Assembly: GCA_002719695.1 (NCBI GenBank)
Contig: PBEQ01000008.1
Location: 14,725-58,312 of the forward strand
Source of the DNA: a bacterium
GTDB taxonomy: Bacteria; Margulisbacteria; Marinamargulisbacteria; GCA-2716485; GCA-002719695
DNA: 43,588 nt
Direction: 5' to 3'
The notes beneath the pieces were generated by a model. That model was not told the DNA's origin, ran no database searches, and saw nothing but the letters and a program-made list of their open reading frames with translations. Numbering within the stretch: the first letter of the stretch is position 1; every line of letters begins with the position of its first letter. Below, one piece after another: positions 2,548 to 31,245 of this stretch. The position numbers were made by a program, and so were the translations under genes.

Positions 2548-3201
2548 GTGTATACTAATGTGAAACAGCTACAAGTTTATTTAAATAAGGCTCGATTTGG
2601 AATATTTGTATTATTTATATGGATGTTTTTATATAATGGGTATAGTTTTTCAGAAACATCTAATACATTGATAGATATTAGCAATTCTAGTCAATATAGT
2701 TTATCTATCCTCAAAGATATTTCAAATGGATTAACGGATTTTTTTGGTATTATTAATAGAAAAGTTGGAAGTAAGGCAACAAATATTAATAATAAAGACA
2801 ACAAACTCGTTATTTTATCTATGAGCTTTAATCAATTGTCATCATCTCCAAATAGTTTGGGTAATATTATTGATCCCGATGAAGATGTTGAACCTGCTGT
2901 AACAAGTAAGCCCTTGGTATATCCAAACCCATTTAGACAATCAACACAGAATGGTGCTATTTTGTCATATGATTTGTCTAAAGATTTTTCATTTGAAATT
3001 CATATCTATAATATGTTGTCACAGCGCGTGTTTAAGCAAACATTTCAGGAGGGTGGCCCTGGCGCTAGAAAAGGAGCGAATAGATTGCAGATTAATCAAG
3101 AATCATTAGGGGGTTATTTATTATCATCAGGTGTTTATTTTTATGTGTTTGTTCATAATCAAGATGTGTTAGCAAAAGGTAAAATGGTGGTGAAACCATG
3201 A
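2548..3201 (+). CDS. Exported protein with C-terminal FlgD-Ig-like / T9SS sorting-signal-like domain
   Basis: GTG start; hydrophobic N-terminus (FGIFVLFIWMFLYNGYSFS); C-terminus 'KPLVYPNPFRQST...AILSYDLSKDFSFEIHIYNMLSQRVFKQTF...SGVYFYVFVHNQDVLAKGKMVVKP' has the YPNPF...GVYFY...GKMVV layout. Confidence 0.65.
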   Translation: MYTNVKQLQVYLNKARFGIFVLFIWMFLYNGYSFSETSNTLIDISNSSQYSLSILKDISNGLTDFFGIINRKVGSKATNINNKDNKLVILSMSFNQLSSSPNSLGNIIDPDEDVEPAVTSKPLVYPNPFRQSTQNGAILSYDLSKDFSFEIHIYNMLSQRVFKQTFQEGGPGARKGANRLQINQESLGGYLLSSGVYFYVFVHNQDVLAKGKMVVKP

Positions 3202-4178
3202 TTAAATTAAGATTATATATAATACTTTTATTGTGTATGTTTTGTGTGTCTTCAAATGAGGCATTTGAAACATATTACTTTTCTCCAGATAGTGTGGGTT
3301 CTTCTGCAAGATCGATTCGATTAGGCGGTGTTGAAGGGATGAGTTCACACGCTGATTCTGTATTTGAAAATCCAGCTGCATTGTATCGAATCAAGCGGTT
3401 TTCAAGTTCTTTTTTTCAAACTGAGTTTATGGAAGAGGTTGTGTATCAAAATGTTGCATTTGCAACGCGAACGTCATTTGGCGTTTTTGGGGTTGGTTTT
3501 TTTAATGTTGGTGTTGATAACATTCCTAAAACAGATAAAATCGAGTATGAGGATTATACAGATTATTTTGTGAGATATTATTTTAACTATCAAAACTCTT
3601 TGCTAAAAGGATCGTATCAATATTCTGTATCAGATTATATTCATATTGGCGTTTCTGGTTCTTATTTTTTTAATGATTTTGATACAGTTCGTGGAAGTGG
3701 TTATAACGGTGATTTTGGACTTTTGCTAGATCTTGGCCGATTTGAATTTTCTATGTTAATTCGTAATTTAATTTCATCTAACGAAGTTTTGTACACGGAT
3801 TCGGAAGTTGGTGATAATAGTAGTGATGGAATTACAGAAAAGCTTTCCATTCAAAACATTTATTCGGTAAACTATAAATTAAGGAACTTCACAATGTATG
3901 GTCAATTTAAAACAGTTGGGGAGCAACGAGAGTTGCATAATACGCTTGGATTACAGTTTAATCCACGATTTTTACCTTTTTTAAAAGGATCTGTGGCTTA
4001 TAAACAATATCCTCTTGTTGCTTATGAGGAAGGTGATTTAGCAATGCAAGATAAAAACTCTTTGGTTTTTGGATTAGAACTTAATTTATCAGGTTTGCAT
4101 TTTAATTATGCTTATGAGAGAAGCGATCATATTCAATTTGAACATAAAAATTATTTTTCAGTGGGGTTATCGTTTTAA
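3198..4178 (+). CDS. PorV/UPF0164-like outer-membrane beta-barrel protein
   Basis: Signal peptide, then 'GSSARSIRLGGVEGMSSHADSVFENPAALYRIKRFSSSFFQTEFMEEVVYQNVAFATRTSFGVFGVGFF' (early 'ARSxxLGGA...NPA' layout of PorV/UPF0164 proteins); alternating beta pattern; C-terminal aromatic 'FSVGLSF'. ATGA overlap with the upstream gene. Confidence 0.7.
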   Translation: MIKLRLYIILLLCMFCVSSNEAFETYYFSPDSVGSSARSIRLGGVEGMSSHADSVFENPAALYRIKRFSSSFFQTEFMEEVVYQNVAFATRTSFGVFGVGFFNVGVDNIPKTDKIEYEDYTDYFVRYYFNYQNSLLKGSYQYSVSDYIHIGVSGSYFFNDFDTVRGSGYNGDFGLLLDLGRFEFSMLIRNLISSNEVLYTDSEVGDNSSDGITEKLSIQNIYSVNYKLRNFTMYGQFKTVGEQRELHNTLGLQFNPRFLPFLKGSVAYKQYPLVAYEEGDLAMQDKNSLVFGLELNLSGLHFNYAYERSDHIQFEHKNYFSVGLSF

Positions 4179-30752: not shown

Positions 30753-31245
30753 ATATCTTTGGTTGTATATCGTCTGTATTGTTGATCTTTGTAATAGTTT
30801 TACAGTATCAAGTTCTCGTTTTTCTCAGTGGATTTTTCGTGAGGTTAAATGGATTCTTTTTGTTATAGATGGTGCTTGTAAACATTCAGGGAACTGTTGT
30901 AAATCTATTCAAATATCTTATGATTTTTTTCCAATAAAAACTATCAATCGTTTTAATGCTATTTGTAACCATGATTCTAATATGACGCGTTTTATACCTA
31001 ATGTTAAAAATGATGCAATAGATTTTTTTGATTGTCGTTGTTTAACGAGTGATAACTATTGTTCTAGTTATCAATCAAGACCTAAATTTTGTGTTCAGTA
31101 TCCACGTAATATTTTGTTTTCAGATGCTCAATTATATGAAGGATGTGGTTATTATTTAAAACAAGTTATATATTTACCATTTTTTTCTTCTTCATCTTTA
31201 AAAAAAAAGATTATGTGTTTTAAATTTAATAATCATTTGTCTTAA
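30736..31245 (+). CDS. YkgJ-family-like cysteine cluster protein (putative metal-binding)
   Basis: 'CKHSGNCCKSIQIS...CNHDSN...DCRCLTSDNYCSSYQSRPKFCVQYPRNI...GCGYYLK' matches the YkgJ-type CxxxxxCC...C...C...RPxxCxxYP arrangement. Confidence 0.8.
   Translation: MKIVVKYLWLYIVCIVDLCNSFTVSSSRFSQWIFREVKWILFVIDGACKHSGNCCKSIQISYDFFPIKTINRFNAICNHDSNMTRFIPNVKNDAIDFFDCRCLTSDNYCSSYQSRPKFCVQYPRNILFSDAQLYEGCGYYLKQVIYLPFFSSSSLKKKIMCFKFNNHLS

What the first reader, a model, noticed from the sequence alone, without database searches (positions are those of the whole stretch)
2548..31245. Compact ~28-kb apparent operon: sorting-signal protein, PorV-like barrel, giant fibre 1, Xer recombinase, S2P protease, giant fibre 2, YkgJ-like protein
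Four junctions are exact 4-bp ATGA overlaps (3198, 18551, 19399, 20109), and the YkgJ ORF opens inside the 3' end of giant gene 2. Two paralogous giant surface-fibre genes bracket a recombinase and a membrane protease with no intergenic space. Translational coupling implies co-regulation, and I know of no described system with this layout. This is my best candidate for an undescribed cell-surface system.
Basis: partly seen in the sequence, partly recalled or inferred. Interest (0 to 1): 0.8.

Follow-up and report, generated by a model that had tools for sequence, protein, structure and literature searches.

The report
Paired giant fibre genes, Marinamargulisbacteria
An uncultured marine bacterium carries two huge genes for thread-like surface proteins whose tails resemble the self-assembly domain of phage tail spikes, each with its own helper genes, and the recombinase and protease between them are ordinary housekeeping genes that happen to sit there.

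Summary
Seven ORFs run co-directionally from 2548 to 31245, with four 4-bp ATGA overlaps. Comparison with 56 genomes of the phylum splits the "operon" into three parts.

(1) Passenger: xer-S2P, ancestrally NUDIX-xer-S2P. In 34 of 44 genomes with this S2P it lies beside a xer, and 19 of those lack the giant genes. It is inverted between the giants in two genomes and reduced to xer in a third. So it is housekeeping.

(2) Module A: CTD protein, barrel, giant1. The trio was found wherever giant1's upstream was visible (10 of 10), even where giant1 lies elsewhere. The barrel model's best solved matches are PorV of the type IX secretion system.

(3) Module B: giant2 with a CxxCxxCC protein, in 11 genomes.

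The giants are ancient paralogues that separate in a tree. Both end in a Peptidase_G2-type intramolecular chaperone homologous to phi29 gp12, with an invariant DYAE motif, then a coiled coil.

Best reading: trimeric, self-maturing surface fibres, the first with a dedicated PorV-like barrel and a small type-A CTD partner. Neither giant carries a CTD, so how they cross the outer membrane is open.

Verdict: partly supported. It is a new variant of a known kind; the recombinase-protease link is incidental.

The parts
2548..3201 (+). small secreted protein (217 aa) with a C-terminal type-A (T9SS-like) sorting domain ending ...LAKGKMVVKP
   Evidence: TIGR04183 28.1 bits over cut-off 23; relatives directly upstream of the barrel and giant1 in all genomes where that stretch is visible
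3198..4178 (+). outer-membrane beta-barrel of PorV fold (326 aa)
   Evidence: NF033709 35.6 bits, below cut-off 90; AlphaFold2 pLDDT 88.5; best PDB matches PorV chains 8gl6_F 1.9e-10 and 6h3i_F 1.7e-9
4194..18554 (+). giant1: 4786-aa secreted fibre, N-terminal signal peptide by eye, repetitive shaft
   Evidence: one of two ancient giant lineages
17988..18551 (+). giant1 C-terminal Peptidase_G2-type chaperone domain (from DYAEYM) plus coiled coil
   Evidence: PF11962 matches 32 of 33 aligned members; alignment A1
18551..19402 (+). xer tyrosine recombinase, ordinary chromosomal Xer, passenger of the fibre cluster
   Evidence: PF00589 1.5e-40; paired with S2P across the phylum; groups with S2P-linked Xers, the genome's other Xer is in a separate 100% clade
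19399..20112 (+). S2P-family (M50) membrane metalloprotease with HEWAH and PIPPLDG motifs, passenger
   Evidence: PF02163 3.8e-12; linkage to xer
20109..30752 (+). giant2: 3547-aa secreted fibre with about 20 GxGT-type shaft repeats
   Evidence: phrog_9942 tail fiber 2.8e-13; 51-nt repeat family D1
30189..30749 (+). giant2 C-terminal Peptidase_G2-type chaperone domain (from DYAEYL) plus 50-residue coiled coil
   Evidence: PF11962 E 4.2e-4; AF2 model pLDDT 80.8; Foldseek best 3suc and 3gqh, phi29 gp12; profile hits same entries
30736..31245 (+). CxxCxxCC (YkgJ-type) cysteine-cluster protein with an N-terminal hydrophobic stretch
   Evidence: PF03692 24.8 bits over cut-off 23; directly after giant2 in 11 genomes with conserved cysteines

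Best explanation
This is a class-wide surface-fibre locus of Margulisbacteria (marine lineage Marinamargulisbacteria), threaded around an unrelated housekeeping cassette. Shown from sequence: two paralogous giant proteins end in a phage-type (Peptidase_G2) intramolecular chaperone with a coiled coil. Giant1 is encoded behind a small type-A CTD protein and a PorV-fold barrel. Giant2 is usually followed by a cysteine-cluster protein. Inferred mechanism: the giants enter the periplasm by Sec. The C-terminal chaperone trimerises each one and folds the repeated beta shaft. It then probably cuts itself off just before the invariant Asp of GA|DYAEY, as in phi29 gp12, leaving a long mature fibre. The PorV-like barrel anchors or passes the small CTD protein at the outer membrane, and this pair helps to display giant1. 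The Xer and S2P proteins do their usual chromosome-resolution and intramembrane-proteolysis work and are carried along by gene order.
For: Chaperone: Pfam PF11962 in 32 of 33 members; PDB profile hits to 3gqh/3suc phi29 gp12 and Dpo31 D4; fold hits to the same phi29 entries as ranks 1 and 2. D, Y, A and E of DYAE are invariant in 35 of 35 rows. The phi29 fragment 3gqh starts at the equivalent Asp, and the mature gp12* model ends at residue 691 (PMC6542822). Barrel: best solved matches are PorV. CTD: TIGR04183 over cut-off. Module A: the CTD-barrel-giant1 order was seen in 10 of 10 visible cases, including G025 and G027 where giant1 is not next to xer. Six of six CTD genes found in the own genome lie beside a barrel-like gene. 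Passenger status. Module B.
Against: No experiment. Neither giant has a CTD, so the T9SS-like partner may have nothing to do with exporting them. A SprA-type translocon is not established. Fibre and trimer state are inferred from homology. The chaperone model has modest overall TM-scores (0.38 by query length), perhaps because the tool folds a monomer. The xer-side position of the giants is kept in several families, which leaves room for some shared regulation.
Confidence: 0.6

Rival explanations
1. A single functional system: the S2P protease and the Xer recombinase regulate the giants, for example Xer-driven DNA switching and S2P-driven signalling of fibre assembly.
For: Tight overlaps and shared strand in the genus; giants flank the cassette in the window's order and in two other families of the class.
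Against: Cassette present without giants in 19 genomes; inverted in G011/G015; S2P absent in G016; giant1 remote in G025/G027. Xer is one of the two ordinary chromosomal Xers. No long near-perfect inverted repeats in 2400-31400.
Confidence: 0.08
2. A T9SS-like split substrate: giant1 and perhaps giant2 are exported through a type IX-like translocon, with the secretion signal supplied in trans by the small CTD protein bound to the PorV-like barrel. This is a sharper form of the best explanation.
For: PorV fold, type-A CTD, constant CTD-barrel-giant1 order, no CTD on the giants; a class-wide outer-membrane-like protein of 1.5-1.8 thousand residues with short SprA-model matches.
Against: The SprA relation rests on a short repeat that also matches phage tail models, and a profile of the family finds no SprA in the PDB. 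PorU (PF01364) not found, though the control did not ring either. Published work calls T9SS exclusive to Bacteroidota (PMC12618676).
Confidence: 0.2
3. Integrated phage or phage-derived tail locus.
For: Tail-fibre and tailspike-chaperone homology; tyrosine recombinase nearby.
Against: No capsid, portal, terminase or lysis genes in the window; flanked by SepF, YggS-type, YchF and ATP synthase genes with synteny conserved to order level; giants inherited as two groups across a class.
Confidence: 0.05
4. Giants are ordinary large adhesins whose C-terminal domain is only a trimerising cap and never cleaves.
For: Cleavage is untested; the residue before the Asp varies (A, G, R).
Against: D, A and E are invariant even in distant relatives from other phyla.
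Confidence: 0.2

Closest known systems
Phage phi29 preneck appendage gp12 and other tailspikes with Peptidase_G2 / intramolecular chaperone autocleavage domains
   Same: C-terminal chaperone domain with conserved D-[YF]-A-E, beta-rich shaft before it; sequence and fold matches
   Different: Cellular, secreted, 3500-4800 aa instead of about 850; carries an extra C-terminal coiled coil; no phage context
Flavobacterium SprB/SprF and other type-B CTD adhesin plus PorP/SprF shuttle pairs (PMC9143113, PMC12618676)
   Same: Giant surface protein encoded with an adjacent barrel of the PorV/PorP kind
   Different: The giant has no CTD; the CTD is type A and sits on a separate small protein; the barrel lies between CTD gene and giant; the phylum is not Bacteroidota
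PorV of the type IX secretion system
   Same: Best fold match of the barrel
   Different: 13-14% identity, NCBIfam score below cut-off; several paralogous barrels, one beside each CTD gene found
420-810-aa secreted tail-fibre-like proteins of Bacteroidota, Verrucomicrobiota and others with the same C-terminal domain
   Same: Same DYAEY chaperone domain
   Different: Roughly four to ten times shorter
Giant1-5 surface proteins of Apilactobacillus kunkeei (PMC12863079)
   Same: Consecutive giant surface-protein genes in a small genome (abstract)
   Different: Gram-positive host; only the abstract was read and no shared domain was tested

Membership tests
Peptidase_G2 / intramolecular chaperone tailspike family | Homologous C-terminal chaperone domain | tested here: met
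   PF11962 in 32 of 33 members, best 3.2e-9; the window's giant2 itself scores 20.2, below the 25-bit cut-off; PDB profile and fold hits
Peptidase_G2 / intramolecular chaperone tailspike family | Conserved cleavage-site Asp and nearby Glu | tested here: met
   D and E of DYAE invariant in 35 of 35
Peptidase_G2 / intramolecular chaperone tailspike family | Trimerisation and autoproteolysis | not testable with these tools
   Needs expressed protein
Type IX secretion system | Substrates with CTD sorting domain | tested here: met
   TIGR04183 over cut-off in the window gene and in every one of 24 genomes
Type IX secretion system | PorV-type shuttle | tested here: met
   Met by fold; by sequence only below cut-off
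Type IX secretion system | SprA/Sov translocon | tested here: inconclusive
   No match over cut-off in 24 genomes; short weak matches in 14; family profile finds no SprA structure
Type IX secretion system | PorU C25 sortase | tested here: inconclusive
   No match, but no control genome rang either
Type IX secretion system | PorK/L/M/N motor and ring | not tested
   Searches kept for other questions
SprB-type giant T9SS adhesin | CTD on the giant itself | tested here: not met
   Giants end in Peptidase_G2 domain and coiled coil; no CTD family match
Trimeric autotransporter (type Vc) | C-terminal YadA-type membrane anchor | tested here: not met
   No Pfam anchor match; C-terminus modelled as soluble domain plus helix
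Xer-type invertible surface locus | Inverted recombination sites flanking the switch | tested here: not met
   Only two 31-44-nt pairs at 70-74% inside giant1

The most novel reading that the evidence does not exclude
A type IX-like export route outside Bacteroidota that displays giant, self-cleaving, phage-tailspike-type trimeric fibres, with the secretion signal supplied in trans by a small CTD protein held by a dedicated PorV-fold barrel.
Probability: 0.2. Interest if true: 0.75.

Novelty: new variant of a known kind. Interest (0 to 1): 0.5.

Why it matters
Margulisbacteria are an uncultured relative of Cyanobacteria whose surface biology is almost unknown. About 25 kb of a 1.3-Mb genome goes into two fibre genes kept as distinct paralogues across a class, so they should matter for attachment or partner contact. 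The parts join two things not usually seen together: a phage-type self-assembly domain on giant cellular fibres, and PorV-fold barrels paired with type-A sorting domains outside Bacteroidota. The analysis also shows how a compact, overlapping gene run can mislead: overlap in one genus made unrelated housekeeping genes look like system components.

Tried and rejected
Full-length giants against Pfam gave only chance-level hits, including a 17-bit Botulinum_HA-17 match below cut-off that I disregard; the C-terminal piece had to be scanned alone. Direct phmmer of giant2 against the PDB found nothing. Invertible-switch idea: no suitable repeats. Phage origin: no phage structural or packaging genes. 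SprA: short matches on a repeat, not accepted as homology. PorU: search had no positive control. Xer tree: two rows (G043x, G036x) were mistranslated and are ignored. Literature searches for Margulisbacteria with type IX secretion, and for giant tail-fibre surface proteins, found nothing. The phi29 autocleavage paper (Xiang 2009) is not held, so the role of the Glu rests on the E-to-Q change visible in the pre-mature structure 3suc and my own knowledge.

Full report
Where it is. The window is contig C8 of a 1.33-Mb draft genome, 74% complete. Relatives are unnamed in the genome tool. The contig of order-level relative G005 has the same length (189,298 bp) as QFBS01000001, Candidatus Marinamargulisbacteria bacterium SCGC AG-410-N11, and a close barrel relative is named from Marinamargulisbacteria SCGC AG-343-D04. 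I therefore place the genome in that lineage of Margulisbacteria.

The observation. The seven ORFs, their sizes and the four ATGA overlaps are as described. There is a 15-bp gap between barrel and giant1. Four-bp overlaps are common in this genome (7 of 41 other same-strand neighbours), so they are weak evidence by themselves.

The xer-S2P pair is housekeeping. In 56 genomes of the phylum (own included), the S2P has a match in 44. In 34 of these it lies directly downstream of a xer on the same strand (my count from coordinates). Often a NUDIX hydrolase precedes the pair (domain confirmed in five genomes). The giant C-terminal domain matches strongly in only 16 genomes, all in one class, so 19 genomes have xer-S2P without giants. 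In a tree the window's Xer groups with other S2P-linked Xers, and the genome's second Xer falls in a separate, fully supported clade. That is the usual two-Xer set.

The giants flank it, but not obligately. G005, G021 and G023 show the full order: CTD protein, barrel, giant1, NUDIX, xer, S2P, giant2. In the window's genus the NUDIX gene is gone from this place. In G016 only xer remains between the giants. In G011 and G015 the cassette is inverted, with an added epimerase-like gene, so it cannot share the giants' transcript. In G025 and G027 giant1 lies elsewhere (next to genes resembling rpsO and pnp in G025), but still directly behind its CTD protein and barrel, while giant2 stays downstream of the cassette.

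Two old paralogues. A tree of the C-terminal domain places 13 giant2 sequences on one side of a branch with 98/96 support, and every giant1 on the other. The duplication predates the sampled families of the class. The window's giants align at 24% over 2163 residues, and giant2 has 20 GxGT-type motifs against 1.7 expected after shuffling.

What the giants are. Their last 190 residues are a Peptidase_G2-type intramolecular chaperone followed by a coiled coil. Evidence: Pfam in 32 of 33 members, PDB profile hits to phi29 gp12 and the Dpo31 chaperone domain, and fold hits to phi29 gp12 at ranks 1 and 2. DYAE is invariant. The solved phi29 fragment starts at the matching Asp, and the mature gp12* model ends at residue 691 (PMC6542822). 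In the pre-mature structure 3suc the matching Glu is Gln. By analogy the giants should trimerise and cut before this Asp; this is inferred, not shown. Relatives of the domain in other phyla sit on proteins of 420-810 aa, so the length is the local novelty.

The helpers. The barrel model (pLDDT 88.5) matches PorV chains of the T9SS translocon best. The small upstream protein ends in a type-A CTD. In the own genome all six CTD genes I found sit beside a barrel-like gene, five of them with a PorV, PorQ or PorP model match; the sixth (L209) has no direct model match but resembles its neighbour's paralogue in L211, which does. In Bacteroidota, CTD proteins rely on PorV or on cognate PorP/SprF shuttles (PMC12618676, PMC9143113). 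The gene after giant2 is a cysteine-cluster protein found at that place in 11 genomes and absent there in G005, G023 and G025.

What remains open. Neither giant has a CTD, and a SprA-type channel is not shown. A class-wide protein of 1.5-1.8 thousand residues gives short SprA-model matches, but I do not count that as homology. How the giants cross the outer membrane is therefore the main unknown.

Noticed in passing
window 38617-39324 and 39340-39591: The F-type ATP synthase operon encodes a 235-aa c subunit with three fused hairpins (three ATP-synt_C stretches), followed by a normal 83-aa c subunit. The middle hairpin has Gln where the others have Glu (QAVTQT against QAVTET). The same pair is in G001 and G002, and the 235-aa gene also in G003 and G005. 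A mixed c-ring like that of Acetobacterium but with a triple hairpin is possible.
   Followed up: partly
G000:C7:6902-12394 (L223), G001:C36 (L205:2482-8001) and relatives: A beta-rich protein of 1.5-1.8 thousand residues with a signal peptide by eye, conserved across the class, gives short matches to the SprA model; it could be a distant translocon.
   Followed up: partly
own genome C3, C8, C27, C32, C47, C48: Type-A CTD proteins each lie next to a PorV/PorQ/PorP-like barrel gene, although published work calls T9SS exclusive to Bacteroidota.
   Followed up: partly
L209:6873-9284: 804-aa protein with a barrel-like start and S-layer homology domains next to a 1063-aa CTD protein.
   Followed up: no
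window 31325-31801: 158-aa protein of no known family with an acidic Asp/Glu-rich tail, conserved just upstream of ychF in several families of the class.
   Followed up: no
G016:C14:37318-43738 (L120) and G027:C50 (L114): Further CTD-barrel-fibre triplets elsewhere in relatives, suggesting that the triplet is a reusable module.
   Followed up: no
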